A stretch of 64,000 bases of DNA from Pseudomonas sp. SL4(2022) (GTDB taxonomy: Bacteria > Pseudomonadota > Gammaproteobacteria > Pseudomonadales > Pseudomonadaceae), in the NCBI RefSeq assembly GCF_026625725.1, contig NZ_CP113060.1:248001-312000 (forward strand), read 5' to 3'. The notes below the pieces were generated by a model. It worked only from the letters and a program-made list of their open reading frames with translations, did not search any database and was not told where the DNA came from. Positions 5,838-24,378 of this stretch are shown here, in pieces. The translations under genes were made by a program, and so were the position numbers. Position 1 is the first letter of the stretch. Each line of letters starts with the position of its first letter.

Positions 5838-5908
5838 CGTTGTTCTCGCTTCTTGCTGACCTGATACCTTGGATATCGGCTTTCCAGCGCAAAGCTTTAA
5901 CAATCAAA

Positions 5909-7837: not shown

Positions 7838-8230
7838 TCAGGCCTCGGCTTTGAATAACAGACTACGAACCTCCGAAAGATTTTCTGCAAGCTGCAGCGC
7901 TTCTTCTGAAGGAATTTGCCGAATCACATCACCCGAACCTGCATCCGTCACCTTGACTACAACTCGACCACTCCCCTCCTCCAGGGAGAAATTGAGACTG
8001 CGCCGGACCGATTGAACGAAATCCTGAATTGTCGCAACAGCGGCTTCAACTTCTTCGCGAGAAGCTGCAGGACTGCTCTCAGCTTTAGTGGCGGTGGCCA
8101 CTGCAGCCTCTTCAGCCTGCTTACGCTCAACAGCATCAGTCGTAACTTTTGCAGATGAGCTTGGCGCTCGCTCTGCTTTTGAAGCAACGACGTTCGGGGC
8201 GGACGTAACCTGAATCGAACTAATGTCCAT
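7838..8230 (-). CDS. flaG: FlaG family flagellar protein
   Basis: 130 residues. The first 70 residues are low-complexity Ala/Ser/Glu. The conserved FlaG core follows, with VQSVRRSLNFSLEEGSGRVV, VKVTDAGSGDVIRQIPSEEA and QLAENL. FlaG is associated with filament length control in several genera; its exact role in Pseudomonas is less clear. It lies between fliC and fliD as in P. aeruginosa. Only 72 bp separate it from fliC, and that gap contains a hairpin, so transcription may come partly from fliC read-through. Confidence 0.93.
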   Translation of the reverse strand: MDISSIQVTSAPNVVASKAERAPSSSAKVTTDAVERKQAEEAAVATATKAESSPAASREEVEAAVATIQDFVQSVRRSLNFSLEEGSGRVVVKVTDAGSGDVIRQIPSEEALQLAENLSEVRSLLFKAEA

Positions 8231-8302: not shown

Positions 8303-9805
8303 TTAGCCGAGCAGGCTGAGCACAGCCTGTGGCAGCTGATTGGCCTGGGCCAAGATCGCAGTACCGGCCTGTTGCAGGATCTGGTTCTTGGTCAGTTCCG
8401 AGGTTTCAGCAGCAAAGTCGGTGTCACGAATCCGGCTACGTGCAGCCGAGGCGTTCTCAGAGATGTTCTGCAGGTTCGAGATGGTGTTCTCGAAGCGGTT
8501 CTGCACAGCACCGAGCTGGGCACGCTGACTGTCAATGTTGGATATCGCACCGTTGATGATCCCAAGAGCATCCTGAGCGCCAGTAGAAGTGCTGATATCG
8601 ATGTCCTTCACCGAGTCCAGAGTACTGAAGCTGCTGGCACCTGCTGCGCTGGCCACACCGGCACCCATACCGGTTACCTGGAAGGCATCAGGTGCTTCAA
8701 AGATAACCTGGCCATCCACGCGGGCATCGTTGGTTGTACCGCTGGTAAGGCTGACAGCCGCGCCAACAATTGCCGAACCGTCAAAGTTACGTGCTTCCAA
8801 CGATGCGGTTGCGGTACCACTGATGGAGAAGTTCTCGATCTTGATCGCATCGCCGCGATCACTGACCAGCTCAATGAAGCTGCCTTTCGATACAGCAGAA
8901 ATACCGGTCTTACCGCTTTCCTTGTTGATCGCCTCAGCCAGAGAAGAGAGGTCAGCAGTATCGGTGACCAGTGCCGAGATATTCGCGTTCTCGGTAGAGG
9001 TTGTTTTGCTGTTAGCGCCATACAGAGAGAACGCGATGGAACCAGAAGCAGACACGGTACCCAGACGCGCAACAGTACGGGCGTTGGCGGTTACGCCGGT
9101 TTCGTCGCTCTTCGAGTTGACCGCCGAGGCAATCTCACCGGCCGAACCACTGGCAGCAAAAGTTACTGCAGTGGCAGAGCTGTTCAGCTTGGAGTCAATG
9201 CTGAAGCCGGAGGAGCTGTAGACGCTGCCGCTGGTTGCGCTGAATGCACCACTGGTGGCGAACGCACCACCGCCAGAGGTGGTGTAACGGTTCACACCAA
9301 TGCGGTCAGTCGCAGCAGAACCGATGGATACGTTGATATTTTCATAGGCGTTGGCGCCTACCTGGAAGCTTTGCGAACCGAAAGAACCGTCAAGAATCTT
9401 GCGACCACCAAAGCTTGTGGTATCGGCAATACGGTTCAGCTCTTGCTGGAGCTGGGACACTTCACCCTGTAGGGCCGCGCGCTCAGAAGCACCGTTGGAA
9501 CCGTTGGCAGACTGCAGAGCCAAGTCGCGCATGCGCTGGAGAATACCAGTCGACTGCTGCAGGGCACCTTCAGCGGTTTGCGCCAGGGAGATACCGTCGT
9601 TGGAGTTACGGGTCGCAACGTTCAAACCGTTGATCTGACTGGTCAGACGGTTGGAGATCTGCAGGCCTGCGGCATCATCCTTGGCACTGTTGATACGGAA
9701 GCCGGTGGACAGGCGCTGCAGCGAGGTGTCCAGGCCTTTGGATGAGGTATTGAGGTTACGCTGAGTATTGAGCGACGCTACGTTTGTGTTGACTGTAAGG
9801 GCCAT
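8303..9805 (-). CDS. fliC: Flagellin FliC
   Basis: 500 residues from [19 protein letters not shown]; an in-frame codon five residues earlier is discarded. The conserved D0/D1 ends are present: the N-terminal part reaches about residue 150 (RISTG-type [19 protein letters not shown]) and the C-terminal part ends [14 protein letters not shown]. The central 150-400 region is variable and very rich in Ser, Thr, Gly and Ala ([20 protein letters not shown]). That is suitable for surface O-glycosylation, although sites cannot be assigned from sequence. A near-consensus FliA promoter lies upstream, and the presumed glycosylation operon directly precedes the gene. Confidence 0.97.
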
Positions 9806-9905: not shown

Positions 9906-9932
9906 GTATCGGCGGTTTCAAGAGTAGCTTTA
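9906..9932 (-). promoter_or_regulatory. Sigma-28 (FliA) promoter of fliC
   Basis: On the minus strand: TAAAGCTA, 11 bases, GCCGATAC. This matches the sigma-28 consensus TAAAGTTT-N11-GCCGATAA at 13 of 16 positions with exact spacing. It lies about 100 bp upstream of the fliC ATG, with a usual long untranslated leader. Confidence 0.85.
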
Positions 9933-10077: not shown

Positions 10078-13000
10078 TCAGTTGGGCAACCATGAGGCGC
10101 GCCAGGCATCAAGGTTAGCGCCTTCCAGCATCCAGCCCTCACGCACCTGCCTGCGCAGCTCGTCGCCCATGCTGGCACTCGCATCCAGATCATTGATGTG
10201 CATACGGATGGCGTCGACCCAATCCTTGAATCGATTCTTGACTCGGGTAACAGGCAAAGCCCCCCGGTAACAAACCAGATCACTGCAAATCACCGGAAAA
10301 CCACAGGCACCGTATTCCAGAAGACGCAGGTTGCTTTTGCACTCGTTGAACAGGTTCTGCTCAACCGGAGCCAACGCCAGATCCAAATCCAGCTTGGCCA
10401 AAGCCGCCGGGTAACGCTCGATATCAACTCCCGCATGCACCTCATGCACATAAGGGCGGATTTTGTCCGGGCACATACCCATAAAGACCCACTCAACCTC
10501 TCCAGCCAGCTCTCTGACTACATCGAAAATCAATTCCAGGTCACCGGTGTGACTGATACCACCAGCCCAACCAACGCGAGGTTTGGCCCCACGACGCCGA
10601 GCCGCAGAGAGATCGCTCCACCAATCGAGCGGCAAGCGGTTCTCTATGACTCGAATATCATCATGTAAACCGGAAAAAGCTTCCGCCAACGGCTCGGTAG
10701 ACACCGTAAAGCGATCCACAAAGCTCAGCCCTCGGCGCAAAGACTTGAAAACATCTTTAGGCATTTGCGCTCGGTGAACACTCTTGATTGGGAGGTTAGG
10801 CAGGTAGTCATCCAGCTCATAAATGGTGAATGCTCGGGAGAACTTCTTGATCCTGCGCATCGCCTCCAGTCGGTCATCGCCGATCTGGCGCTGCAACACA
10901 ATCACATCGGGCTTCAAGCGTTCCAGATCAGGCACCTGAAGCAACCCAAAGGACATCATGCCATCGACCAGCCCAGCATCTTTCAGCGCTGAAAATGGCT
11001 TGATTACACGATAGTGCCCACAACCATAAGGATCAGCAGGGTGAGTCAGCACCACTGGCAGAGGCCGCCACGTAAGAGGGCGCCATGTCAGACCGGCATC
11101 GACTTCCAGATCAAAACCACGCCCGCTCAATGCCAGGTTTCGGTTATAAGCCGGATCATGCGCAATCGCTGACAAGTGACGCTCATAAAATGCATCCTGC
11201 TCAGCAACATCCGGCTCTCTGTACTCTTGCTCGTGCATAAGCAGCGCATGGGCCGCCCATACAGTCAGATAACCGGCGGCACGCACGCGCAAACAGAAAT
11301 CCACATCGCGATATGCACTCAACGTGACATCCAATCCGCCCAATTGGCGGAAGATGTCGGTGCGTACCATCAGGCAAGCCTCGCCGACAGCCGTGTAATT
11401 CTGATCAACCTGCAGCCGCTGCATATACCCTGCGCTGTCAATTGCCTCACCGGCAAAAGCGCGCGACGCAGGTCCGCGAAGCCCCAACAACAAACCAGCC
11501 TGATCGACATGCCCATCACTGCGCAGCAGTTTGCCCCCCACCACCCCGACTTCAGGTCGTTGTGCATGGTTCAGCAACTCATCCAGCCATATTTCAGAGA
11601 CCACAACTGATTCAGCGGACAAGAGCAGCAGGTAGTCACCCTGCGCATGCAGAGCAGCCGTGTTCTGCGCCTGCATAGCTGTATCGGCTGAAATCACTTG
11701 CAGCTTGGGATCCGCCAAACCGCTAATGCCCTGTAACCAAGCCTGGGTCGAAGCATCCAGCTGATCATGTGCTGCCAGGAGAACTTCGTAATTCGTATAG
11801 CGAGTCTTCTCAAGCAGGCTGTCCACACAGCGCTGCAGGCTGGCCAGGGATGCCTCTAGCGCAATAACAATGGACACCATAGGTGTGTCCATCTGGCCGT
11901 AATTGATGCGGTAGCGCGCCGGTAATCCGGGAATAACCTGCGCCTGATAACCACGCTGCAACAAATGACGCTCAATCACGCGGCACTCATCGGGGTTATC
12001 ACGCAATACCGGTGCATCAATGATGACCAGCGGCTCATCAATATGACCCAGCCCCACCAAGCCCTGGGCTTCAATGAGTCGAGCGATCAGGTCAAATTCA
12101 AGCGCATCGGAAAACTGCGCATCAAAACCACCCAGATCCAGCACAATGTCACGACGAAACAACCAGTAACGCGCCATAACCAAGGGGAAACTGAGCAACA
12201 TATCCAGGTTGAATGCCGGGAGAAATGCCCCCCCCAAAGCACCATCTGGAAGACGCTGCAACTGATCACCGTATACCGCACGGCAACCCGGGTTCGCCGC
12301 CAACTCGAGCCCCGCAATCATCAAGCCGCTGGAAGTAAATTCATCCCCCGCTCGGGCCAACATAAACCAGGAGACCTCACTGTCAGCCAACAGCCGATTG
12401 AGCTGCGATGCCAAATCTTCATCCGTCATATGGACAAAGTGCAGCTTGTCTTGCGCCGACGTGGCTGGCGTATCACGGCTGCTTGTCAGCACGACAATTT
12501 TCAGGGTGGCATACAAACAATGCTCACCAATCAAGCTCTTTAGCGTTTTCATCAAGGGGGCTGACTGCCCCTCAACATCCAGCACCATGATGCCGATTAA
12601 CGGACCACCACCCTGCTCCTGCAGGTGCTGGTTAATCAGACGATTTTCTGCTTGGGTGGGTAAACGCTGCGCCAACCAATGCTGCAAGGTGTAGGCCTCG
12701 CGCGAGGCTCCCGACGACACACCCAGACGTTGCAGCATGTCTTCGCGGGCGCGCTGTAGCGGCCCCGCTTGCGATCCTGGGTAACGTTGATAAAGCATCT
12801 GATAGAGCGCGGGAAAATTCTTTCTCTCTCGCCCCAGCATATGTTCGCCCGCAGCACTCTGTTGACGAGTGTGGACTTCGGTCGTCACCAGCGGCACATG
12901 GACAAAGGGATAATGCGTGGCGAGACGCAGGAGCATGTCCCAGTCTTCAAACGCCGCCAATCCAGTGTCGAATTCACCCACCACATTCAACATCTCGCGC

Positions 13001-14403
13001 GGGTGCGCCCAGGTATTGACCGGTATGTAATTCTGGGTGAACAGCCGATCCCGATCAAAAACCTCATGGCAGTAGGGTTGGCTGCGCGCCAGCTCAATTC
13101 GCTGCTCGCCTTCAAGCCGCTCACTGACGTATTCGACACCGGTGTAGATGACGCTGCCTGGATCGCGCACGAAGGCTTCGGCCAATACAGCAAGATGATT
13201 AGGCAGATAGATGTCATCGTCGTCCAGATAGACGATGTAACGTCCCCGCGCCAATTTCAAACCGGCATTTCGCGCAGCCGACAACCCCTGGTTACGCCCC
13301 TGACGCACGTAGGTCACCGGCATATCAACCTGAGCCAGCACGTGCTCCACAGGCTCGCCTGCGTCATTGATCACGATCAGCTCGTAGTCCTGCCACGCCT
13401 GGTTCTGAACACTGTGTAAGGCATCGATCAACAACCCGGGGCGGTTGTAGGTCGTGAGAATGATCGAAAACATGGGCGCCGATGTATCTTCTGCACGCTC
13501 AGAGGCAAACAACGCGCGGTGAATAGCTGCGACGCGATCAGCAATCTGCGCCCTCACCTCTTGAGAATACTGGCTCTGCCGGCGCTGATAGAGATCCCAT
13601 ATCAGACTGGCTTTTGCCCGTAAACGCGGCAAAACCTCAGGGCAAGCCAGGTTGAGCTCCAGAATCTCCGTATGTTCTAACAGCGGTTTTGAGGACGAGT
13701 AGAAACTCTGGGAAATTTGCCCGCCGTGCACGCGGTAGCCGACAGTGCGCTGGCGCAGAAATACAAAGTCTGGATTATGCCGAGCGATCCGCGTCCAGAG
13801 TTCCCAATCCCCCGCCACCAGATCAGGGCGGTGCACATTCCCATCAACAAGTTGCACATGCGCAAAAACAGCACGTCGGAACATAACGGCAGATGGGGTG
13901 ATGTAGTTATCGAAACTCAGCAGGTCGACAACTTCATCACGTCGACCAAAATACGAACAAAGGCGATGCCCGGGGTGGACTGGCTGTTGAGTCGCCGCAC
14001 CTGTTTCATCAATCCACTGGCACTGGGTGTAGACCAGGTCGGACTCCGGATGTAACTCCAAAGCCGCCACCTGGTTTGCTAAATGACCAGGGTAAAGAAG
14101 ATCATCCGAACCCAGGACAACGACGAAACGCCCTGTACCCGCTCGCAAACAGCGGTTGTAGTTACCCATCATGCCGAGGTTGTTCTGATTAACCTCATAT
14201 GAAAAACGCGCATCACTCGTGTAGCGTTGCAGCACATCGAGAGTCTGATCTGTCGAACAGTCATCAAATACAAACAGCTCCAGGCTGACACCCTCTTGGG
14301 CCAGCACTGACTCTATCGTCTGCGCGATGTAGGCACTGTTGTTGTAGGACATCACGGCGACCGTGACATCGGGTCGAATATTGGTCACACAGCCCCCTCG
14401 CAT
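10078..14403 (-). CDS. Large multi-domain glycosyltransferase, candidate flagellin glycosyltransferase
   Basis: 1441 residues from the ATG at 14403, which overlaps the upstream stop (TGATG); an upstream TTG is possible. At least three GT-A (family 2) modules are visible. The first (about 12-260) has FDDCSTDQT and LGSDDLLYPG. The second (about 310-560) starts IILTTYNRPGLLIDALHSV and has VYLDDDDIYLPNHL. A degenerate module lies at about 620-800 (MLARAGDEF). A further one (about 845-1080) has IVIALEASLASLQRCVDSLL and EVGVVGGKLL. The C-terminal 320 residues look like a GT-B (family 1/4) domain, with THPADPYGCGHYRVIKPF, GWAGGISHTGDLELI and LRLLEYGACGFPVICSD. Its position directly upstream of fliC matches fgtA or fgt1 of other pseudomonads. 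It probably attaches or extends the flagellin glycan; donor order is unknown. Confidence 0.85.
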   Translation of the reverse strand: MRGGCVTNIRPDVTVAVMSYNNSAYIAQTIESVLAQEGVSLELFVFDDCSTDQTLDVLQRYTSDARFSYEVNQNNLGMMGNYNRCLRAGTGRFVVVLGSDDLLYPGHLANQVAALELHPESDLVYTQCQWIDETGAATQQPVHPGHRLCSYFGRRDEVVDLLSFDNYITPSAVMFRRAVFAHVQLVDGNVHRPDLVAGDWELWTRIARHNPDFVFLRQRTVGYRVHGGQISQSFYSSSKPLLEHTEILELNLACPEVLPRLRAKASLIWDLYQRRQSQYSQEVRAQIADRVAAIHRALFASERAEDTSAPMFSIILTTYNRPGLLIDALHSVQNQAWQDYELIVINDAGEPVEHVLAQVDMPVTYVRQGRNQGLSAARNAGLKLARGRYIVYLDDDDIYLPNHLAVLAEAFVRDPGSVIYTGVEYVSERLEGEQRIELARSQPYCHEVFDRDRLFTQNYIPVNTWAHPREMLNVVGEFDTGLAAFEDWDMLLRLATHYPFVHVPLVTTEVHTRQQSAAGEHMLGRERKNFPALYQMLYQRYPGSQAGPLQRAREDMLQRLGVSSGASREAYTLQHWLAQRLPTQAENRLINQHLQEQGGGPLIGIMVLDVEGQSAPLMKTLKSLIGEHCLYATLKIVVLTSSRDTPATSAQDKLHFVHMTDEDLASQLNRLLADSEVSWFMLARAGDEFTSSGLMIAGLELAANPGCRAVYGDQLQRLPDGALGGAFLPAFNLDMLLSFPLVMARYWLFRRDIVLDLGGFDAQFSDALEFDLIARLIEAQGLVGLGHIDEPLVIIDAPVLRDNPDECRVIERHLLQRGYQAQVIPGLPARYRINYGQMDTPMVSIVIALEASLASLQRCVDSLLEKTRYTNYEVLLAAHDQLDASTQAWLQGISGLADPKLQVISADTAMQAQNTAALHAQGDYLLLLSAESVVVSEIWLDELLNHAQRPEVGVVGGKLLRSDGHVDQAGLLLGLRGPASRAFAGEAIDSAGYMQRLQVDQNYTAVGEACLMVRTDIFRQLGGLDVTLSAYRDVDFCLRVRAAGYLTVWAAHALLMHEQEYREPDVAEQDAFYERHLSAIAHDPAYNRNLALSGRGFDLEVDAGLTWRPLTWRPLPVVLTHPADPYGCGHYRVIKPFSALKDAGLVDGMMSFGLLQVPDLERLKPDVIVLQRQIGDDRLEAMRRIKKFSRAFTIYELDDYLPNLPIKSVHRAQMPKDVFKSLRRGLSFVDRFTVSTEPLAEAFSGLHDDIRVIENRLPLDWWSDLSAARRRGAKPRVGWAGGISHTGDLELIFDVVRELAGEVEWVFMGMCPDKIRPYVHEVHAGVDIERYPAALAKLDLDLALAPVEQNLFNECKSNLRLLEYGACGFPVICSDLVCYRGALPVTRVKNRFKDWVDAIRMHINDLDASASMGDELRRQVREGWMLEGANLDAWRASWLPN

Positions 14404-15476: not shown

Positions 15477-16417
15477 TCACCCACTCCCTGCGAACCGATC
15501 CAGTTCAGAAACTCGCTGTAATCGCGCAGGTAGTCCTGCGAGTCGTAATCGTGTGATGCAAAAACCAGCAAAACAGCGTCCGCACTATATGCATATTGGC
15601 TGGCCCAAATACCGGCAGGCAGATACAACCCTTTATTGTTTTTATCCAAGAGGAACTCCTCTCGCGCATGGCCGTCATCCGCCATCACGCGAACAGTGCC
15701 CTGAGTACAAATCAAGAACTGCTCACACACTTTATGTGCATGTTCGCCTCGTACATCTTTGCTGGGAACGTTGAACACCATGAAGTAGCGCTTCGGTTCG
15801 AAAGGAATCTCACTGGAAAAACTACCCACGGTTAATGCACCACGCATGTCCTCATGAAGAGCGAAATGCTGGAGCACGACCCCACTCACGCGCGACGCGT
15901 ATCGCTGATCAGTCTGAGTCGGTGCCACAGCATCCGCCTGCGCTGGAACCGTAGTGGAATACCCCACGATGCGGGCAGGATTACCTACCACAATTGCATA
16001 GGGCGGCACTGAATGAGTCACCACAGCGCCAGCACCCACCATGGCATAGCGGCCAATGGTCAACCCCGGAAGGACGGTGGCGTTCGCCCCGATCGACGCC
16101 CCTCGTTCGACCTTAGTCGCCAAAAACCGCTCGGGATATTGCTTGCTGCGGGGAAAGCGATCGTTGGTGAACGTGGCATTCGGACCGATAAATACATCGT
16201 CCTCGATACGCAAACCGTCCCACAGCTGTACGCCACACTTAACCGTGACGCGATCACCAAGGACAACATCATTTTCGATGAACACATGGTCACAGATATT
16301 GCAGTCACGCCCCAGGCTGGCGCCCGGTAACACATGGGAAAACGCCCATATCCGAGTTCCCTCGCCCACATGAGCGGTTTCACAAAGCCCTTGAGGATGC
16401 ACCATAAAGCCACTCAT
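15473..16417 (-). CDS. WxcM-like bifunctional sugar N-acetyltransferase / dTDP-4-keto-6-deoxyhexose 3,4-ketoisomerase
   Basis: 314 residues. Residues about 1-150 form a left-handed beta-helix acetyltransferase (repeats such as VGEGTRIWAFSHV, GANATVLPGLTIG, AGAVVTHSVPPYAIVVGNPA), like FdtC/QdtC. Residues about 180-310 form an FdtA/QdtA-type cupin isomerase (GEHAHKVCEQFLICTQGTVRV, GLYLPAGIW). Xanthomonas WxcM has the same domain fusion. With the upstream aminotransferase it should give dTDP-3-acetamido-3,6-dideoxy-hexose (Fuc3NAc or Qui3NAc type) from dTDP-4-keto-6-deoxyglucose. The start is at MSGFMVHPQG, coupled to the upstream stop by TAATG. A longer in-frame start is rejected because it would overlap the aminotransferase coding end. 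Confidence 0.88.
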   Translation of the reverse strand: MSGFMVHPQGLCETAHVGEGTRIWAFSHVLPGASLGRDCNICDHVFIENDVVLGDRVTVKCGVQLWDGLRIEDDVFIGPNATFTNDRFPRSKQYPERFLATKVERGASIGANATVLPGLTIGRYAMVGAGAVVTHSVPPYAIVVGNPARIVGYSTTVPAQADAVAPTQTDQRYASRVSGVVLQHFALHEDMRGALTVGSFSSEIPFEPKRYFMVFNVPSKDVRGEHAHKVCEQFLICTQGTVRVMADDGHAREEFLLDKNNKGLYLPAGIWASQYAYSADAVLLVFASHDYDSQDYLRDYSEFLNWIGSQGVGE

Positions 16418-17514
16418 TAGGCGACTCCTTTTACAGCCTGCTGACATGCAGCAATGACTGTCGATATCTCGGTTTCAGTCAGCTCGGGGAAACATGGCAG
16501 GCTCATCAAGCGCGGCGTAACAGCTACGGTTACAGGCAAAGACACGGCCTCAGCCTGTCCACCGCCCTGCAGATGATCCGCAATGGGGTAATGAACATCA
16601 CTGCCGACACCAGCCTCGGCGAGGCGTTTGCGTACCTCATCACGCGCCGGCAACTGCACGACAAAGAGATGGCACACATCATCGTCATGAGGCTCACCCG
16701 GCAACACCCAACCGAGATTGGATAGCCCTGCGCGGTATGCCCGGGCAACGTCCCTGCGCTGCTCATTCCAGCGGTCTAGATGAGGCAACTTCTCCAGGAG
16801 AACGGCCGCTTGCAACTCATCAAGACGACTATTGCGGCCGCCGCCAACAACCACCTGATACTTGCTGCCCCAGCCATACTGACGCAGCTGACGCACGCGG
16901 CCCAAGGCATCATGATCCGTACCGGAAACAAGGCCACCATCGCCGAGCGCACCCAGGTTTTTGGTTGGGTAGAAACTGAACGTTGAAAGGTGCCCCCAGG
17001 CACCGGCTGCTCGCCCATCACGCCGAGCGCCATGGGCCTGAGCACAATCTTCGATCAGCGCGATACCGGCACCATCACACAACGCACGCAAACGCCCTAC
17101 ATCCGCCATTCGACCATAAAGGTGAGTGGCAATGACTGCACGCGTACGCGGCCCGATCAGCTGCGCAACCAATGAGACATCCATCAATAGGTGCACCGGT
17201 TCGATGTCCACATAACGCGGCTCTGCCCCCACGGCCCGAATAGCACTGCTGGCATACATACCAGCGTTCGCGACCGTAATCACCTCATCGCCAGAGCCAA
17301 CTTTCAGGGCGCGCAGTGCCAACTCCAGGGCATCGGTACCGTTACCCACAGCCACGGCATCCACGACCTCGAGATAGTTGGCAAACGCATGCTCAAAGGC
17401 CTGACCTTCCGGCCCCAGGATGTAGTAACCACGCCGCAAGACTCGTTCCATTGCGCGTTGCAAGTCATCAAGCAACGGCTGGTTGTGACGGTGCAGGTCG
17501 TTGATCGGCAGCAT
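16417..17514 (-). CDS. DegT/DnrJ/EryC1-family sugar aminotransferase
   Basis: 365 residues from MLPINDLHRHN; the longer open frame would overlap the methyltransferase gene. It is a PLP-dependent fold type I enzyme. The lysine that binds PLP is K185 in STFSFYPTKNLGALGDGG. GNGTDALELAL (about 58-68) and IEDCAQAHGA (about 154-163) are the other family motifs. The nearest functional types are FdtB/QdtB, which aminate C3 of dTDP-3-keto-6-deoxyhexoses. This fits the ketoisomerase/acetyltransferase encoded next. RmlA and RmlB, which make the starting nucleotide sugar, are not in this window and must be encoded elsewhere. Confidence 0.9.
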   Translation of the reverse strand: MLPINDLHRHNQPLLDDLQRAMERVLRRGYYILGPEGQAFEHAFANYLEVVDAVAVGNGTDALELALRALKVGSGDEVITVANAGMYASSAIRAVGAEPRYVDIEPVHLLMDVSLVAQLIGPRTRAVIATHLYGRMADVGRLRALCDGAGIALIEDCAQAHGARRDGRAAGAWGHLSTFSFYPTKNLGALGDGGLVSGTDHDALGRVRQLRQYGWGSKYQVVVGGGRNSRLDELQAAVLLEKLPHLDRWNEQRRDVARAYRAGLSNLGWVLPGEPHDDDVCHLFVVQLPARDEVRKRLAEAGVGSDVHYPIADHLQGGGQAEAVSLPVTVAVTPRLMSLPCFPELTETEISTVIAACQQAVKGVA

Positions 17515-17533: not shown

Positions 17534-18280
17534 TCAGCGACGCTGAGCCACCCACACGTTAGTCGAATACGGGATCTGGATATGCGAAGTCTTGAGGCTG
17601 GCAAGGTAGTGCTCAATGGCATCAACCACCGCCAAGAAACGATCGCCAGCCTGACGCTGCAGGGTGGCGTGAGAGCGCCATGCCTCAACGCACTCTTCGA
17701 TGGACTGTTCATGCATCACATTGGCATCCAGATGCACCACCGGGCCGAACAGACCGCTGCCATCGATGATGGCCGTCTGGTCTTCACGGCGGGTGCCATA
17801 GCCGTAGCCTGACACCTCGGCCTTGATGATGTTTTCGATTTCGTTCTGGATCGGATCGTCCAGACGACGATGGTTCCACATGCACGCGAACCAGCCAGCA
17901 GGTTTGAGGATGCGCACGGTTTCCAGCAGTGCCTTGGGGCGGTCGCACACATTGAACGAGCTACCGAAAGTGACCATGTCAAACTGGCCATCCTGCTGTC
18001 CGGTCTGCTCGCCGGTGCCTTCAAACCAATTGACGTTGGCAAAGCTGGCGGTGCGTTTGATGCCATTGGCACGCATCGCATCGTTGGGTTCAACGGCCGT
18101 CACCTGAAACTGGCGGGCGGCAAGCATCAGCGTCAAATGCGCGACACCGGCACCCACATCGCAGATGCGCCCCTGCGTTAAACCGGCGATTGCCAACATG
18201 GCATCAATTGCCGCATCCGCGTAGTCCGGTCGCTTGAGATAGGCATCAGCGAGCGAGGTATAGTCCCATTCTGTTTTCAT
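17534..18280 (-). CDS. SAM-dependent methyltransferase, candidate phosphoramidate O-methyltransferase
   Basis: 248 residues, a class I Rossmann methyltransferase. Motif I is RICDVGAGVAHLTLML at about 36-51, followed by VTAVEPNDAMR. Motif post-II/IV is FDMVTFGSSFNVCDRPKALL. In C. jejuni the phosphoramidate enzymes are followed by methyltransferases of about 250 residues (Cj1419, Cj1420), and this gene holds the same position. The likely job is methylation of the phosphoramidate or of the sugar; the acceptor cannot be read from the sequence. It overlaps the upstream kinase gene by 4 bp. Confidence 0.8.
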   Translation of the reverse strand: MKTEWDYTSLADAYLKRPDYADAAIDAMLAIAGLTQGRICDVGAGVAHLTLMLAARQFQVTAVEPNDAMRANGIKRTASFANVNWFEGTGEQTGQQDGQFDMVTFGSSFNVCDRPKALLETVRILKPAGWFACMWNHRRLDDPIQNEIENIIKAEVSGYGYGTRREDQTAIIDGSGLFGPVVHLDANVMHEQSIEECVEAWRSHATLQRQAGDRFLAVVDAIEHYLASLKTSHIQIPYSTNVWVAQRR

Positions 18281-18810
18281 CTTGGCATCTCTTGTTCGGC
18301 TAGTTTCACAAGGGCTTGGAGCATGAGATCAACCGACAGGCCGGGCTGATAATCCAGTATCAGATCTGCGCTCAGCGGTTCATCGATAGGCAGATCCAGA
18401 CCGGCCACATGCCGAATCTCACCTGCATCGAAACGTTGGTAAAGGCCTTTAGGATCGCGACGACGAAGCTCATCAAGCGGTACCTTCAAGTAGACCTCGC
18501 GATAACCGGGCAGATGCTCACGGTTCCAGGCATGCACTTCACGGAACAGCGAAATGGTCGCGATGACTACAGTGAGCCCCTGCCGGGCCAGTACCTGGCA
18601 TAAATGCGCATATTGCATGGCCAAGCCAAGACGCCCTTCACGACCGTGATTGGCCTGACTATTGGCTACAGCCCCAAACACTTCGCGCAGCTCATCTCCG
18701 TCCAGCAATACGACGGCATCCCCGCCCTCACGCAGGTGTTCAGTCAGCGCGCGCGCCAGCGTACTTTTGCCGGCACCGGACAATCCGGTAATCCAGATCA
18801 CGCGGCTCAT
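18277..18810 (-). CDS. CysC-like kinase, probable cytidine diphosphoramidate kinase (Cj1415 type)
   Basis: 177 residues. It has the APS-kinase fold with the P-loop GLSGAGKST at 9-17, VVLLDGDELREVFG, and YLKVPLDELRRRDPKGLYQ. No sulfate assimilation gene (cysD, cysN, cysH) is nearby. The gene instead sits in an operon with homologues of the C. jejuni phosphoramidate enzymes. There the CysC-like protein Cj1415 phosphorylates the 3'-hydroxyl of the ribose of cytidine diphosphoramidate. Length and gene order match. Genuine APS kinase is the alternative, made unlikely by context. It overlaps both neighbours by 4 bp. Confidence 0.82.
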   Translation of the reverse strand: MSRVIWITGLSGAGKSTLARALTEHLREGGDAVVLLDGDELREVFGAVANSQANHGREGRLGLAMQYAHLCQVLARQGLTVVIATISLFREVHAWNREHLPGYREVYLKVPLDELRRRDPKGLYQRFDAGEIRHVAGLDLPIDEPLSADLILDYQPGLSVDLMLQALVKLAEQEMPR

Positions 18811-19553
18811 TGGGGGCCACCGGCCAGGGCCTGGGCTGATAGCAGGCGGTGATAGAGCTCAAGGTCCTCACAGGCGTCCACTTCGCCCCAGGGGCCCACC
18901 ACTGGCGACACGGCTATACGCTCGCCCGTGGCCAACAGCCGCCGCAGCAGAGTCGTCATATCCAGCCGATCAACGTCGCTCGCCTCCAGGCTCAACAACC
19001 ATTGCCTGATGCGTGCCCAGGCGGCCGGGGTAAATTTCAGCAGGCCCATGTACTGGCCCTGTATCTGCGCGACGGATGTGCAACGCTCCCCAATCGTCGC
19101 CAAGTCACCTTGCTGATCAAGGGAAAAACTTTCCGCATCGGCCAGCGGATCAGTGAAGCGCTGCGACCATAAGGTTAACCAGTTGGGGTCATAGGCGATG
19201 GCCAGCGCCGCAGGGTTAGCGGCGAGCGACATCACCGTATTGGCGGTGTAGACAATATCGCTGTAACTGACGATGCAATCGTCGCCAGACAGCCATTCGT
19301 CAGCCGCCAGCAGCGTGCGCACCATGTTGCTGCTAGCCCACAACGGGTTCTCCAGATAGTGCAGATCAAGGTCAAAAGCCTCACCACAATACCCACGCAC
19401 CAGAGCGACGTGTTCAATACCCGCGCCGTGTAATGCTGACACTTGCCAATCAAGCAAACGCCGGCCATGCAGGACGGCAAAACACTTGGGCTGATGGTCG
19501 GTCAGCGCTTTCATTCGACTGCCTCGACCAGCAGCCAGGATCAAACCTCGCAT
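18807..19553 (-). CDS. Nucleotidyltransferase, probable CTP:phosphoglutamine cytidylyltransferase (Cj1416 type)
   Basis: 248 residues. The N-terminal signature of sugar-1-phosphate and phosphocholine nucleotidyltransferases is clear (LILAAGRGSRMKALTDHQPK, residues 4-23). DCIVSYSDIVYT at about 90 carries the metal-binding aspartate. Related LicC proteins make CDP-choline, but no licA, licB or licD is present. In the phosphoramidate pathway the homologue Cj1416 joins CTP and N-phospho-L-glutamine to give CDP-L-glutamine plus pyrophosphate. Size and gene order agree with that role. The stop overlaps the kinase start by 4 bp. Confidence 0.84.
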   Translation of the reverse strand: MRGLILAAGRGSRMKALTDHQPKCFAVLHGRRLLDWQVSALHGAGIEHVALVRGYCGEAFDLDLHYLENPLWASSNMVRTLLAADEWLSGDDCIVSYSDIVYTANTVMSLAANPAALAIAYDPNWLTLWSQRFTDPLADAESFSLDQQGDLATIGERCTSVAQIQGQYMGLLKFTPAAWARIRQWLLSLEASDVDRLDMTTLLRRLLATGERIAVSPVVGPWGEVDACEDLELYHRLLSAQALAGGPQ

Positions 19554-19567
19554 TTAACCGCGCCCTC

Positions 19568-20182
19568 TCATTCCATATACCTGCGCTGCATCAGAAAATC
19601 GCTTACCCGGGCGACATCCTGCGGGTTGTAAGGTGTTTCACGCTCCGGATGCCACATCAGGCCAAGCACCGGCAGGCTCGAGTGACGCATGGCTTCCACA
19701 CAGCCATCTTCGGCATACGCCAGGGCGCACAGGGGATCAGGCAATGCATAAGCCCCCCAGCCATGGTAACTGTTCACATCATGCCAGGCGTTGCCGATCT
19801 GTAGCTGATGACGCGTACCCACATGCCCCTCAATCGCTTGCAGCTCGCCGCCGAAATAACGGATCAGAAACTGCATACCCCGGCACAGCCCCAAAAGCGG
19901 TAAGCCCTCTGCCAGGGCCTGATTGACCAGTGCAAGCTCGGTCGCATCGCGCTCGGGGGCATCGCCTCCCAAACAGGCCAGATCATTGCCTCCGGACAGT
20001 ACAACAGCCACCGGTTTAACCTGCGCCCAATAGTGCGCCACCAGCGCAGGATTATTGGGTACAGGCACTGCCAACACACCCATCTCGGCCAACCAGTGCA
20101 CCAACCGCTGGTCAAGCGCGTCACGACGCTCGCCACGCGCAGGCAAGCACTCAACTCGCTGGCTGAGCAGCACCGGTTTCAT
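19568..20182 (-). CDS. Class I glutamine amidotransferase-like hydrolase, probable gamma-glutamyl-CDP-amidate hydrolase (Cj1417 type)
   Basis: 204 residues from MKPVLLSQRVE. The catalytic triad of a peptidase C26/GATase 1 fold is visible: C100 in PLLGLCRGMQF, and H178 and E180 in LMWHPERE. The oxyanion region VVLSGGNDL is also present. There is no synthetase partner domain, so a free hydrolase is expected. Cj1417 releases L-glutamate from CDP-L-glutamine and leaves cytidine diphosphoramidate. PuuD-type gamma-glutamyl-GABA hydrolase is the usual automatic label, but no putrescine genes are nearby. The start overlaps the upstream kinase stop by 4 bp. Confidence 0.84.
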   Translation of the reverse strand: MKPVLLSQRVECLPARGERRDALDQRLVHWLAEMGVLAVPVPNNPALVAHYWAQVKPVAVVLSGGNDLACLGGDAPERDATELALVNQALAEGLPLLGLCRGMQFLIRYFGGELQAIEGHVGTRHQLQIGNAWHDVNSYHGWGAYALPDPLCALAYAEDGCVEAMRHSSLPVLGLMWHPERETPYNPQDVARVSDFLMQRRYME

Positions 20183-22518
20183 CGCAGAATGTCCACACGG
20201 CGCGCAGCACAATCGAGCTTCAAGACGCGCGCGGCCACCCATCGGTTGTAGAGCGCCTCACCGGCGCCGATCACGGCCGGAAGACCTAGCTCGTTGGCAC
20301 GGATGGCCATGTGCGAATTGACACCACCATAGGCCGTAACAAAACCGGCAATGCGGTGCGAAAACAGCCAATCAAACCCCGGATCGGCACTGGGAATCAT
20401 GACAATGGCACCAACCAGCTCATCACGCTGATGATGCGAAACTACGTTGCCAGTGGCCTGGCCATGGGTAATGAAATTAGGCTCACTCTGCGGCAGGTGA
20501 AAGACCAAGGCATCCTCAGGCGCAGTGATCAGCGGCGGCAGCATCAATTGGCAGGTCTCCGCGTAACGGCGACGACCATCAGCAATGCTGCTTGCCAGCA
20601 ACTCGTGAGGATCTGCACTGGCGGCGTGCAATTCCTTGATCACCTGAATATTGGCGAATGCCATGTCATCCTCACTGAAGCCGAGGCTGCGTCCAAAGTC
20701 GCGAAATAGGGACAGTGCATCGGAAAGGTTGCGGGTGAACACGAACTTGGCGTACTCACGCAACTCGATCCCGGCCTGGAGAAAGTCGAACAGTCCAACC
20801 ACGTCATGGGCAAGCCCGTGCTCAGCCAGCAGACGACTGATTGAACGCATCTGCTCCAGCGACAGTGCAAAACGTGGCGTACTCTGATGCGCCGTTTCCT
20901 GGCCGCTTGATTGCCAATCGAAATAGAGCTCAGGCGCCTCGTCGTAACGCGGCGAGAGGATGTCGTAAGTGCCCGGACGCAAATGCCCGTATCGACTGAG
21001 GAATGTGGTGCGATCCAGTTGTTGCCAGTCCCGCGTCATCTGCCCACTGACCGTGTTCAGCCCATTGAGGAAAGCGTTGTAATCCTCAACATCCAGCACC
21101 CCCACCGCAACCAGTGAGCGCAGCAGCTGCACCGCAATAAAGCCTGCCCGGGCCAAACCCGCGAATGGCAGGGTGCCATAGCGACTGCAATCTTCCAGCA
21201 GCCAGTAGATGCGAGACACCGGATCAGTGTCGGCGCTGAGGATTTCTTCCCGGCGCGCCAGCAAGACCTTCAGCTTGGCCTCGTCCGAACGCCACAGCCC
21301 GGTGTTGTTATCAACGATGCGATTGGTCAACTCACGCAGGCTAGCGGCCAGCTGTGCGCACTCCGCCTCACTGAACCCGGCCTCCCGTAGGCGCTCAAGG
21401 CGCTGCGGCAGATCGAGCGTGTAGCAGGAGAAAACGATTTCAAACTCAACCTTGTCATGCAGGCTGGGCGCCGACACCAGCCGCTCGATGTAGTAATTGA
21501 CCAGCTTGTCGGCCAGGGCTCCATCCAGATCGCGCGGCACGAACGAGTTGAAGCTCACACGAACATCGATATAAGGCAGCCCGTGAAAATGCAGCATCAA
21601 CGGAAAGCTGCGCAAATTACGGTAACCGTAATTATTGCGCTGGTAAGCCCAAATCATGTCCGTGACCAATTCACGGTACAGCGACAGCGCCAGCGGCTTA
21701 GGACGTACACCAATAATTTCCGCAGGATTCCAATCCGGCATCACGCCGTAGACCGTACGCTCGCCATGCAGAAACAGCTGTGGCCGCTGGCCGATACGGA
21801 TTCGCTCACGGATCAGCGACACTAGCTGGGTGTGCGTCGCCACATCGACTTCAGGCACCTGAAGCACGAGCGGACGCACTTGCAGCAAATACAAGATGCC
21901 CTGTGCATCGACAGCGAACTCAACATCCAGCGCAGTGCTCCCGAACAGGCACTGAAGCTCACGCAACATGGCCACTACCGGCTGCAGCGGTTGCGGAATT
22001 TGCTCGGCACTGTGGTGTGCATAAAAGTTATGCAGCTCATTGGAATCGCCTGACGTCACGCTGTCAGTACGGCCACTGCTGGAGTCGTAATTAATGACGA
22101 AATACGGCGCGGCCGAACTCGGCTCCACACCGAACGCCACACCGGCAGTCCTGACATTTTCAAGCATGGGCTGGACGAAAACTTCGTCGGCAGCGCTGGC
22201 GTGCTCGCCTCCCATGGAGGCAATGACCGCATAGATGGCGTCCTGCAAGCCGGCTGGCGCCACAGCCAAACAGGACTCGAACTGTCCGGCTGCTGACGCA
22301 TTAGCGGCGTCTTCACGCACGCTTGAGCTCCGCACCGCCATAGAGGCCCAGCCCGCGTCAATAATCCGTCTAAGGCAACTATCCGGCGCCTGTCGCCATT
22401 CACCCACCGAGAACACATGCTGAGACAACAGACTGGCACAGCTCAGCAGGCCTCTAAGGCCATCAAGCGTTCGTGCCTTGCTGGAAAACGCCACGCGGCG
22501 CTCTGTGCCCTTATTCAT
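20179..22518 (-). CDS. PEP-synthase-like L-glutamine kinase (Cj1418 type), first step of phosphoramidate synthesis
   Basis: 779 residues, first gene of the nine-gene operon. Residues about 15-225 form a PPDK-type ATP-grasp region (SMAVRSSSVREDAANASAAG, residues 59-78; FAVDAQGILYLLQVRPL). The C-terminus is the mobile phosphohistidine domain with the catalytic H736 in YGGVNSHMAIRANELGLPAV. The large C-terminal PEP/pyruvate TIM barrel of true PpsA or PPDK is absent; a different central region (about 230-680) replaces it. This layout, and the length, fit the C. jejuni L-glutamine kinase Cj1418, which phosphorylates the amide nitrogen of glutamine using the beta-phosphate of ATP. All three following pathway genes are present in the Cj order. 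Confidence 0.86.
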   Translation of the reverse strand: MNKGTERRVAFSSKARTLDGLRGLLSCASLLSQHVFSVGEWRQAPDSCLRRIIDAGWASMAVRSSSVREDAANASAAGQFESCLAVAPAGLQDAIYAVIASMGGEHASAADEVFVQPMLENVRTAGVAFGVEPSSAAPYFVINYDSSSGRTDSVTSGDSNELHNFYAHHSAEQIPQPLQPVVAMLRELQCLFGSTALDVEFAVDAQGILYLLQVRPLVLQVPEVDVATHTQLVSLIRERIRIGQRPQLFLHGERTVYGVMPDWNPAEIIGVRPKPLALSLYRELVTDMIWAYQRNNYGYRNLRSFPLMLHFHGLPYIDVRVSFNSFVPRDLDGALADKLVNYYIERLVSAPSLHDKVEFEIVFSCYTLDLPQRLERLREAGFSEAECAQLAASLRELTNRIVDNNTGLWRSDEAKLKVLLARREEILSADTDPVSRIYWLLEDCSRYGTLPFAGLARAGFIAVQLLRSLVAVGVLDVEDYNAFLNGLNTVSGQMTRDWQQLDRTTFLSRYGHLRPGTYDILSPRYDEAPELYFDWQSSGQETAHQSTPRFALSLEQMRSISRLLAEHGLAHDVVGLFDFLQAGIELREYAKFVFTRNLSDALSLFRDFGRSLGFSEDDMAFANIQVIKELHAASADPHELLASSIADGRRRYAETCQLMLPPLITAPEDALVFHLPQSEPNFITHGQATGNVVSHHQRDELVGAIVMIPSADPGFDWLFSHRIAGFVTAYGGVNSHMAIRANELGLPAVIGAGEALYNRWVAARVLKLDCAARRVDILR

Positions 22519-22660: not shown

Positions 22661-24331
22661 TTACAGACGGTTAAACAAATTCAGCCCGGCAATCTTCACA
22701 TAGCTCTGCTGTGCCGCCTCCAGCACCACCGTCTGGAAGGACAGACGCGAAAGCGCCTCGGCGTAGTCCAGCTCGCGCAGATCGGCCTGGACAGACTTGT
22801 TTACCAACGTGACGTCCTCGTTATCGATCTGGGTGGTTTCGATCAGGTTCATCCGGGCGCCAATCTCGGTCTGCACCTCCAGGACCTTGCCCAAACCATT
22901 GTCGAGGTTGGTCAAGGCAATGGCGACTTCATCGCGCACACCCAGATTGCCGGCCGCAGAAGAAGGGGCCGACTCAAGCGCCTGACGCAGGCGGCTGATC
23001 GTATTCAGAATACTGCGTTGTTCCTGAAACTGCGGCTGCACGCCAAATTCATCGCCGCCACCCGCCGCAGCCGGCGCAGAGACCGTGAAGTCAGCACCGA
23101 AGACAGTAAAGGTAGAGGGGTAAGGACCCGCAGCTGTGCCGGTTGCAAGCACGGGGCTTCCAGGGCCGACAGGCTGCGCATAAACCTCGTAGTTGGTGGC
23201 GTTGGTAAACCGCAGGACAACCCCCGAGGTCGGAAACTGGCTGTCAAAAGTCGCCTGGTTGCTGATACCAGACGGCGCAACAATCGCCGCCGAATTGTTG
23301 GTCGATGAGCGATTTACGGCAAACTCGGTCGGTGACGACCGCAGGGTAAAGGTGTGGGTGTTGATCCCCGGCGCACCCGGGGTTGCGGTATCGGCCAGCA
23401 GATTATCGAGATCCAGGGGGTTGTCGCCGGGCTTCAGCACCACATCCAGCTGAAACCGCATACCGCGAAAGTTGATGGTATTGCCGCTATTGACCAGCGG
23501 ATCAATCAAACCACCGCCTGGCACCTCTGAGGTGACATCAGCACCGGTGTTGTCATAGATGCGAAATTCCTTGCCGCTGACAAACGCCATCGAATACGGC
23601 TCGCCCGTGCGGAAGCTGGCATTGAACGCCTGACTGTCCTGCACCAGTCCGGGTGACATGAACATCCGCTGATCTGCCGCAGGCAGGGCCGGAATGTTGG
23701 TGGCTGGCAACGGCGGTGTCGGCAGCGCTGGGTTATTGATGCCCAGGGTTTTCAACACCCGGTTGGCATTGCTGACATCCTCGAACAGGCGCTTGCCGTT
23801 GTCGTTGATGGCCACATTACTGGATGTCGCCACCTGCAAGCTGCGCTGCCCTTCGTCACCCTGGTAGGAGTAAGTGCCGTCGGGGTTACGCAGGAACGGC
23901 TCGGTCTTGCCGATAAAACCACTGAACAGGTACTCGCCACGGGCGTTGCGACTGTTCATCAGGTTCAGCAATTCGCCTTCACGCTCGCTCAACTCCTTGG
24001 CCAGGGATTTACGGTCTTCGGCCGACAGCGCGCCGCCCCCGGATTGAACGGCCAACTCACGGATCCGTTGCAGCACGGTCACCACTGAGTTGATCGTGGT
24101 TTCCTCCTGGGTCAGGCTATTTTTCGCGGCAGTGAGGTTTTCCTTGTACTGCCCCAGCACGGCTTGCTGCTGCTCAAGCTGCAGCAGGCGCACGGAGGCC
24201 ACCGGATCGTCGGCCGGCGTCAGGATGCGATTACCGCTGCTGATCTGCTCTTGCGTGCGGATCACATTGGAATAGTTGCGCCCAAGACCATTAACACCGT
24301 TATTGAACGCCTGGATCGAAGAAATGCGCAT
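22661..24331 (-). CDS. flgL: FlgL, hook-filament junction protein (HAP3)
   Basis: 556 residues, longer than the roughly 300-400 residues of many FlgL proteins because of a large variable middle (about 190-430). The ends are typical: MRISSIQAFNNGVNGLGRNY at the N-terminus with QISSGNRILTPADDPVASVRLL, and EALSRLSFQTVVLEAAQQSY plus KIAGLNLFNRL at the C-terminus. An ATG two codons earlier is equally possible. FlgL forms the second ring between hook and filament. It is the last gene of the flgFGHIJKL run, and the glycan operon starts 142 bp downstream. Confidence 0.94.
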   Translation of the reverse strand: MRISSIQAFNNGVNGLGRNYSNVIRTQEQISSGNRILTPADDPVASVRLLQLEQQQAVLGQYKENLTAAKNSLTQEETTINSVVTVLQRIRELAVQSGGGALSAEDRKSLAKELSEREGELLNLMNSRNARGEYLFSGFIGKTEPFLRNPDGTYSYQGDEGQRSLQVATSSNVAINDNGKRLFEDVSNANRVLKTLGINNPALPTPPLPATNIPALPAADQRMFMSPGLVQDSQAFNASFRTGEPYSMAFVSGKEFRIYDNTGADVTSEVPGGGLIDPLVNSGNTINFRGMRFQLDVVLKPGDNPLDLDNLLADTATPGAPGINTHTFTLRSSPTEFAVNRSSTNNSAAIVAPSGISNQATFDSQFPTSGVVLRFTNATNYEVYAQPVGPGSPVLATGTAAGPYPSTFTVFGADFTVSAPAAAGGGDEFGVQPQFQEQRSILNTISRLRQALESAPSSAAGNLGVRDEVAIALTNLDNGLGKVLEVQTEIGARMNLIETTQIDNEDVTLVNKSVQADLRELDYAEALSRLSFQTVVLEAAQQSYVKIAGLNLFNRL

Positions 24332-24378
24332 GACCATAAAGCTAACCTCAAGGTTCTCTCAGCACGCCAAACCGCGCC

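What the first reader, a model, noticed from the sequence alone, without database searches (positions are those of the whole stretch)
17534..22518. Complete phosphoramidate biosynthesis cassette inside a Pseudomonas flagellin glycosylation island
Four consecutive genes correspond in family, length and order to the C. jejuni enzymes Cj1418, Cj1417, Cj1416 and Cj1415 (L-glutamine kinase, gamma-glutamyl-CDP-amidate hydrolase, CTP:phosphoglutamine cytidylyltransferase, cytidine diphosphoramidate kinase). A SAM methyltransferase follows, as Cj1419/Cj1420 do in Campylobacter. Each join but one is a 4-bp overlap. In Campylobacter the product decorates capsule; here the genes lie between flgL and fliC, where Pseudomonas flagellin glycan genes are found. 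This suggests an unrecorded O-methyl phosphoramidate on a flagellin glycan. Automatic annotation would probably miss it, as each gene alone looks like sulfate, choline, putrescine or PEP metabolism.
Basis: partly seen in the sequence, partly recalled or inferred. Interest (0 to 1): 0.95.

Follow-up and report, generated by a model that had tools for sequence, protein, structure and literature searches.

The report
Phosphoramidate gene set in flagellin island
Between two flagellum genes, a Pseudomonas genome carries relatives of all four enzymes that Campylobacter uses to make a rare nitrogen-phosphorus sugar decoration, so this bacterium likely puts that decoration on its flagellum, where our literature searches found no report of it.

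Summary
Nine minus-strand genes run head to tail between flgL and fliC. The first four match the Campylobacter phosphoramidate-donor enzymes far better than PpsA, PuuD, IspD or CysC; the fifth is a methyltransferase 42% identical to one in the C. jejuni cassette. C. volucris has the same four-gene order. I propose gene 8 (14403-15476), a PF04464 protein whose confident model has teichoic-acid polymerase TagF as best Foldseek match; a TagF-like gene sits with the cassette in 19 of 21 Pseudomonas loci. Published work on P. aeruginosa PAO1 and C. difficile proposes such enzymes for moving a CDP-activated phospho-group onto flagellin sugar. Four other Pseudomonas species carry the cassette in the same flgL-fliC slot; 16 of 22 carriers have it elsewhere. 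The flagellin target is well supported by context but not shown chemically. The O-methyl group is weaker: Cj1419/Cj1420 knockouts changed nothing. Glutamine kinase, called 'C. jejuni-specific' in print, is in 22 of 249 genomes of this genus. New variant of a known kind.

The parts
20179..22518 (-). L-glutamine kinase homologue (779 aa), Cj1418 type; phosphohistidine motif NSHMAIR, His736 (role of the His recalled)
   Evidence: NF004508 964 bits vs best PEP-synthase model 50; 43% identity over 776 aa to the C. jejuni gene, 666 vs 30 bits for E. coli PpsA
19568..20182 (-). gamma-glutamyl-CDP-amidate hydrolase homologue (204 aa), Cj1417 type; Cys100, His178, Glu180
   Evidence: NF045546 best at 112 bits (cut-off 250 not met), PuuD model 46; 89 and 85 bits to Campylobacter vs 45 to E. 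coli PuuD
18807..19553 (-). CTP:phosphoglutamine cytidylyltransferase homologue (248 aa), Cj1416 type
   Evidence: 115-121 bits to Campylobacter cassette enzymes, E. coli IspD not reported by phmmer; LicC of the PDB 33 bits
18277..18810 (-). cytidine diphosphoramidate 3'-kinase homologue (177 aa), Cj1415 type
   Evidence: NF004041 206 bits, apsK 112 below cut-off; tree splits 35 cassette kinases (this one included) from 3 housekeeping APS kinases at 100/100; the genome has two other APS kinases over the cut-off
17534..18280 (-). SAM methyltransferase (248 aa) of the kind found in Campylobacter cassettes; predicted phosphoramidate O-methylation, unproven
   Evidence: 42% identity over 253 aa to the C. 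jejuni in-cassette methyltransferase; 73-79% to those of nine stand-alone Pseudomonas cassettes and three f47 loci
16417..17514 (-). DegT/DnrJ sugar aminotransferase (365 aa from the preferred start; longest ORF starts at 17712)
   Evidence: PF01041 316 bits
15473..16447 (-). Fusion of hexapeptide acyltransferase and FdtA-type 3,4-ketoisomerase (324 aa): predicted dTDP-3-acylamino-3,6-dideoxyhexose synthesis
   Evidence: PF00132 and PF05523
14403..15476 (-). TagF-like CDP-dependent phosphotransferase (PF04464, 357 aa): proposed phosphoramidate transferase
   Evidence: PF04464 over cut-off; model pLDDT 95; best Foldseek match TagF; TagF-like gene in 19 of 21 Pseudomonas cassette loci
10078..14403 (-). 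Multi-domain flagellin-island glycosyltransferase (three GT2 domains)
   Evidence: PF00535 x3; homologue in 82 of 119 genomes of the genus, fliC follows in 7 of 8 cassette-free regions read, chosen among its best hits
8303..9805 (-). fliC flagellin (500 aa), presumed acceptor; central part 27% Ser+Thr (ends 20% and 17%)
   Evidence: Sequence
7838..8230 (-). flaG-like gene after fliC (name from recall and position)
   Evidence: ORF; same neighbour in the four relatives
22661..24337 (-). flgL, upstream border of the island
   Evidence: ORF; homologue in the same place in L047, L049, L050, L051
22583..22598 (-). RpoN-like -24/-12 site upstream of the glutamine kinase (weak)
   Evidence: 9 matches in the window vs 2.83 expected; no such site before the gene in the four flagellin-island relatives
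9907..9932 (-). FliA-like promoter of fliC
   Evidence: 2 matches in the window vs 0.00 expected

Best explanation
This nine-gene run between flgL and fliC encodes homologues of all four Campylobacter enzymes that make the activated phosphoramidate donor, and it likely uses that donor to put a (probably O-methylated) phosphoramidate group on the flagellin glycan. Shown here: the four homologues, their order, the in-cassette type of methyltransferase, the TagF-like gene, the dideoxyaminosugar-type genes, the glycosyltransferase and the position. Inferred: (1) the kinase phosphorylates the amide nitrogen of glutamine, the cytidylyltransferase makes the CDP-linked product, the hydrolase removes glutamate to leave CDP-amidate, and the APS-kinase-like enzyme adds a 3'-phosphate, as in C. 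jejuni (the net reaction is in PMC11800397; the step order is recalled). (2) FdtA, the aminotransferase and the acyltransferase make a dTDP-3-acylamino-3,6-dideoxyhexose that the 1446-aa glycosyltransferase adds to flagellin. (3) The TagF-like protein moves the phosphoramidate from the CDP-linked donor to that glycan with release of (phospho-)CMP, by the logic proposed for CD0244 and PA1091 with CDP-threonine. (4) The methyltransferase may methylate the group.
For: Family and pairwise tests favour the Campylobacter set over PpsA, PuuD, IspD and CysC for all four enzymes; 35 cassette 3'-kinases split from E. coli CysC and two other APS kinases of this genome at 100/100. Of 21 Pseudomonas loci found by the kinase and read besides the window (one is a second genome of this species), 21 have hydrolase and cytidylyltransferase, 17 the 3'-kinase, and 19 a TagF-like gene, which is next to the 3'-kinase or cytidylyltransferase in 18. 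Four other Pseudomonas species, and the second genome of this one, have the cassette between flgL and the flagellin glycosyltransferase, with fliC and flaG following in all four other species; the five species' glutamine kinases form one clade at 100/100. In another family, two of three genomes of one genus have cytidylyltransferase, 3'-kinase, methyltransferase and hydrolase among flagellin genes, with the glutamine kinase on another contig. Fold: TagF is the top Foldseek match. Precedent for CDP-activated phospho-groups on flagellin: PMC11833859, PMC10714395 (passages).
Confidence: 0.65

Rival explanations
1. The cassette makes the same donor, but the phosphoramidate goes to another surface glycan (LPS or exopolysaccharide), and its place between flgL and fliC is incidental.
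For: In 16 of 22 cassette-bearing genomes of the genus it sits elsewhere; Xanthomonas LPS and Shewanella carry phosphoramidate (PMC3907429 passage).
Against: The nine genes are collinear and tightly spaced up to the flagellin-island glycosyltransferase; the slot is shared by five species and flagellin genes neighbour a partial cassette in two genomes of another family.
Confidence: 0.17
2. The enzymes have drifted to a related but different CDP-linked unit, for example CDP-glutamine (hydrolase not cleaving it) or an unmethylated phosphoramidate, so the group on flagellin is not methyl phosphoramidate.
For: Hydrolase below the equivalog cut-off; four of 21 Pseudomonas cassettes lack the 3'-kinase; PAO1 and C. 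difficile are proposed to move CDP-activated threonine by a similar route.
Against: NF045546 is still the best hydrolase model and Cys100, His178 and Glu180 are present (the same search patterns found only the Cys motif in C. volucris and neither motif in C. jejuni S4); the window's type of methyltransferase occurs with the 3'-kinase in 10 of 21 Pseudomonas loci.
Confidence: 0.14
3. The four genes are ordinary paralogues of PEP synthase, PuuD, a choline-type cytidylyltransferase and CysC with no joint pathway.
For: Shared Pfam domains.
Against: Each test made separates them from the housekeeping enzymes compared, and hydrolase and cytidylyltransferase are present in 21 of 21 Pseudomonas loci found by the kinase alone.
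Confidence: 0.02

Closest known systems
Campylobacter jejuni capsule phosphoramidate genes cj1415-cj1418 (with cj1419-cj1422)
   Same: All four donor enzymes, similar lengths, same four-gene order in C. volucris, in-cassette methyltransferase
   Different: Decorates capsule there; here the genes lie in a flagellin island with dideoxyaminosugar-type genes and a TagF-like gene; hydrolase diverged; no comparison with Cj1421/Cj1422 was made
P. aeruginosa PAO1 b-type flagellin glycan (PA1088-PA1091) and C. difficile Type A glycan (CD0240-CD0244)
   Same: Flagellin core sugar capped by a phospho-unit proposed to come from a CDP-linked donor by a TagF-like phosphotransferase, with a methyltransferase and a cytidylyltransferase (PMC11833859, PMC10714395 passages)
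   Different: The unit there is (di)methyl-threonine phosphate; here the donor genes are those of phosphoramidate
Flagellin glycosylation island of other Pseudomonas (for example L157)
   Same: flgL - small modification genes - acyltransferase - aminotransferase - FdtA - glycosyltransferase - fliC
   Different: L157 has methyltransferase, HAD, cytidylyltransferase-like and a methyltransferase-PF04464 fusion in place of the phosphoramidate cassette
Unmethylated phosphoramidate in Xanthomonas campestris LPS and Shewanella (named in PMC3907429)
   Same: P-N group on a bacterial surface glycan
   Different: On lipopolysaccharide, not flagellin; their genes were not examined here

Membership tests
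Campylobacter-type CDP-phosphoramidate biosynthesis set | Glutamine kinase of the Cj1418 family | tested here: met
   NF004508 964 bits, cut-off 501; C. jejuni and C. volucris genes hit the same model
Campylobacter-type CDP-phosphoramidate biosynthesis set | Gamma-glutamyl-CDP-amidate hydrolase at the NF045546 equivalog cut-off | tested here: not met
   112 bits vs 250, although it is the best of all models and 2.4 times PuuD's score
Campylobacter-type CDP-phosphoramidate biosynthesis set | Cytidylyltransferase closer to Cj1416-type enzymes than to housekeeping ones | tested here: met
   115-121 bits to Campylobacter cassette enzymes; E. coli IspD not reported by phmmer; best NCBIfam model 51 bits, MurU, far below its cut-off
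Campylobacter-type CDP-phosphoramidate biosynthesis set | 3'-kinase outside the APS kinases | tested here: met
   NF004041 over cut-off, apsK below; tree 100/100
Campylobacter-type CDP-phosphoramidate biosynthesis set | Enzyme activities and the product | not testable with these tools
   Needs purified proteins
Campylobacter MeOPN transferases Cj1421/Cj1422 | Homology of a gene here to Cj1421/Cj1422 | not tested
   Those sequences were not obtained
PF04464 CDP-glycerol glycerophosphotransferase family | Pfam match over the gathering score for gene 14403-15476 | tested here: met
   35.1 bits vs 22.1; TagF best by Foldseek
Pseudomonas flagellin glycosylation island | Glycan genes and flagellin glycosyltransferase between flgL and fliC | tested here: met
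PAO1 b-type / C. difficile Type A phosphothreonine pathway | HAD-family phosphotransferase (PA1089/CD0241 type) in the cluster | tested here: not met
   No HAD domain among the nine island proteins at E 0.001; one is present in L157
Housekeeping APS kinase (CysC) | apsK equivalog cut-off | tested here: not met
   112 vs 138.7 bits; the Campylobacter 3'-kinases also fall just below it, 136 and 133

The most novel reading that the evidence does not exclude
Flagellin of several Pseudomonas species carries a P-N bonded (methyl) phosphoramidate cap, and TagF-like enzymes are a general class of phosphoramidate transferases that take the donor from the 3'-kinase encoded next to them. Flagellin islands then swap whole CDP-donor modules (phosphothreonine or phosphoramidate) around one kept transfer step.
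Probability: 0.55. Interest if true: 0.86.

Novelty: new variant of a known kind. Interest (0 to 1): 0.76.

Why it matters
A review calls the glutamine kinase C. jejuni-specific (PMC9561416 passage), and another says the O-methyl phosphoramidate has so far been identified only in Campylobacter (PMC6429109 passage). The kinase gene is in fact in 22 of 249 genomes of the window's genus, and kinase, hydrolase and cytidylyltransferase lie together in cyanobacteria, a clostridium and an archaeal bin. If the flagellin target is right, a P-N bond sits on a protein-linked glycan of a surface organelle. Phosphoramidates are generally acid-labile (general chemistry, not from a call), so routine acidic mass spectrometry could miss it. 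It also gives a concrete candidate family for the transfer step. In C. jejuni the group is recognised by many phages (PMC9561416 passage), so flagellum-binding phages are a natural thing to look at.

Tried and rejected
Housekeeping paralogues: rejected by curated models, pairwise scores, own-genome controls and a tree. Sulfotransferase-fold transferases: considered because the donor resembles PAPS (recalled) and some cassettes elsewhere (L060, L094) have Sulfotransfer_3 proteins near them; set aside here because the window's genome gave no PF13469 match; PF00685 was not searched in it. RpoN control of the run: one -24/-12-like site has no counterpart before the gene in the four flagellin-island relatives, so left as weak. 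Profile search of the PDB with the TagF-like alignment found nothing significant (best E 0.11). The structure model of the class B 401-aa neighbour was poor (pLDDT 57) and was not used; its link to the TagF-like family rests on hhalign (probability 92.8, E 4e-7) and weak profile hits (E 1e-5 to 1e-4) in 7 of 9 members. Two of the three profiles behind the 19-of-21 count were built from 9 and 4 of those same loci, so those hits are by construction; for the four, the family link is a Pfam hit on the one tested (L050) and weak profile hits on three. The PF04464 scan of 119 genomes found 9, but it missed the window's own gene and that of G411, so it undercounts. My catalytic-motif patterns did not all match the Campylobacter proteins. 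I did not compare anything with Cj1421/Cj1422. Of papers: PMC6643271 and PMC5938751 are not held; a Legionella longbeachae capsule paper (PMC11419355) that mentions methyl phosphoramidate was seen in the listing only. Of the 139 papers found, 40 were listed and most were not opened. No paper was read whole; passages only.
Full report
OBSERVATION. The finding's coordinates hold five minus-strand genes, and they are the first five of nine that run from flgL to fliC without a strand change. Three of the four joins among the five are 4-bp overlaps and one is a 14-bp gap. G+C content of the nine (0.54-0.60) does not set the run apart from flgL, fliC or the window mean of 0.58. The window lies in a 4.44-Mb one-contig genome with one glutamine kinase gene over the family's cut-off.

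ARE THEY THE CAMPYLOBACTER ENZYMES? One collection scan for the glutamine kinase motif in A+T-rich codons gave 24 loci, among them C. jejuni isolate S4, C. volucris, C. bilis, five named Helicobacter species, two Aeromonas species, Prochlorococcus, SAR86, Pelagibacteraceae, Clostridium and a Woesearchaeota bin. Against the C. jejuni and C. volucris proteins, the kinase of the window is 43% and 40% identical over 776-779 columns (666 and 623 bits; E. coli PpsA 30), the hydrolase scores 89 and 85 bits (PuuD 45), the cytidylyltransferase 115 and 121 (IspD not reported), the 3'-kinase 131 and 118 (CysC 78), and the methyltransferase is 42% identical over 253 columns to that of C. jejuni. NCBIfam agrees: the same top model for the window and Campylobacter kinase (NF004508) and 3'-kinase (NF004041), and NF045546 first for the hydrolase, although the window's protein falls below that model's cut-off. 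The genome has two other APS kinases over the apsK cut-off, and a tree separates 35 cassette 3'-kinases from these two and E. coli CysC at 100/100. In C. jejuni these four enzymes make CDP-phosphoramidate 3'-phosphate from glutamine, ATP and CTP (PMC11800397 passage).

HOW COMMON IS IT? 22 of 249 Pseudomonas genomes (the window's and a second of its species included) have the glutamine kinase over its cut-off, and 14 of 398 genomes drawn from the phylum have the hydrolase at E 1e-20 (the same two included). I called reading frames in about 20 kb around the other 21 Pseudomonas kinases and in 12 further loci of the phylum found by the hydrolase. All 21 Pseudomonas loci have hydrolase and cytidylyltransferase, 17 the 3'-kinase and 10 a methyltransferase of the window's type; of the 12 others, 12 have hydrolase and cytidylyltransferase, 10 the kinase, 7 the 3'-kinase and 7 such a methyltransferase. 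The 21 fall into groups: five with the cassette between flgL and the flagellin glycosyltransferase (L047, L049, L050, L051 and L052, the last being this species); nine with a stand-alone operon (L039-L046, L048); and seven more distant ones (L053-L059).

THE FLAGELLIN LINK. In the four other species of the first group the glycosyltransferase is followed by fliC and flaG, 4 of 4. Their glutamine kinases and the window's form one clade at 100/100. Their 3'-kinases (35-39% identical) and PF04464-type genes are not close relatives of the window's and lie on the opposite strand within the island; L050 has a different methyltransferase (400 aa; frames of the same length in L047 and L051, none seen in L049). 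So parts were exchanged while most of the set was kept. The window's 3'-kinase and methyltransferase instead group with the stand-alone operons and with another family, f47. In that family two of three genomes of one genus have cytidylyltransferase, 3'-kinase, methyltransferase and hydrolase among flagellin and FlgK genes (domains checked in one), with the glutamine kinase on a different contig; the third has a whole cassette with no flagellin gene on its contig. The glycosyltransferase has a homologue in 82 of 119 Pseudomonas genomes, and in 7 of 8 cassette-free regions, chosen among its best hits, fliC follows it (not in L155). Against the link, 16 of 22 cassette-bearing Pseudomonas genomes have the cassette elsewhere.

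PRECEDENT. P. aeruginosa PAO1 b-type flagellin carries a deoxyhexose linked through phosphate to what mass spectrometry supports as N,N-dimethylthreonine; the postulated donor is CDP-(dimethyl)threonine, and the phosphotransferase domain lies in PA1091 (PMC11833859 passages). In C. difficile, loss of CD0244, a TagF-like protein, leaves only the core GlcNAc in the later study, whereas an earlier one saw a mixture (PMC10714395 and PMC4441256 passages). A cassette-free Pseudomonas island, L157, has flgL, a methyltransferase, a HAD protein, a cytidylyltransferase-like protein, a methyltransferase-PF04464 fusion, acyltransferase, aminotransferase, FdtA, glycosyltransferase and fliC in a row. Set beside the window, this reads as a module swap at one slot with the transfer step kept. 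That is inference.

THE METHYL GROUP. The methyltransferase belongs with the cassette, and the C. jejuni group can exist with and without the methyl (PMC9561416 passage). But Cj1419 and Cj1420 have no assigned function because knockouts did not change the capsule (PMC11800397 passage). The methyl step is therefore a guess here and in Campylobacter.

LITERATURE. Searches for phosphoramidate with flagellin, glycosylation island, Pseudomonas, glutamine kinase, Aeromonas or Shewanella showed no paper on a flagellin phosphoramidate in their listings. Passages of five listed papers that hold both words were read; they use the term in reference titles, for capsule or for phosphohistidine. Most listed papers were not opened, and the library lacks most subscription papers.

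VERDICT. The cassette is real and the donor pathway is well supported; flagellin is the best-supported target; the methyl group and all chemistry are untested.

Noticed in passing
L039-L046, L048: Stand-alone operon in nine Pseudomonas genomes: remote TagF-like protein - 3'-kinase - methyltransferase - glutamine kinase - hydrolase - cytidylyltransferase, with none of the window's sugar or glycosyltransferase genes in the region (in L042 next to a Mg-chelatase-like gene). Its acceptor is unknown.
   Followed up: partly
L157:7790-11690: Cassette-free Pseudomonas flagellin island with methyltransferase, HAD, cytidylyltransferase-like protein and a methyltransferase-PF04464 fusion, a PAO1 b-type-like set next to FdtA-type sugar genes.
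   Followed up: partly
L153:6861-8624: 587-aa fusion of a sugar epimerase/dehydratase and an APS-kinase domain inside a Pseudomonas flagellin island.
   Followed up: no
L047, L049, L050: Formyltransferase-domain (PF00551) protein beside the 3'-kinase in the flagellin islands of three relatives, absent from the window's island.
   Followed up: no
L056-L059: Four Pseudomonas cassettes with glutamine kinase, hydrolase and cytidylyltransferase but no 3'-kinase within the 20 kb read; two have a TagF-like gene after the cytidylyltransferase, two have none.
   Followed up: partly
L148, L163, L164: Genus g108 of family f47: in two genomes the cassette is split, with the glutamine kinase on a different contig from the other genes, which lie among several flagellin genes.
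   Followed up: partly
L075, L077, L088, L078, L080: Glutamine kinase with hydrolase and cytidylyltransferase in a Woesearchaeota bin, Prochlorococcus, SAR86 and Pelagibacteraceae.
   Followed up: no
L060, L094, L083: Sulfotransferase-domain proteins near phosphoramidate cassettes (below cut-off in L083): possible alternative transferases for a PAPS-like donor.
   Followed up: partly
window 5874-5899 (-): A second FliA-like promoter match besides the one upstream of fliC.
   Followed up: no
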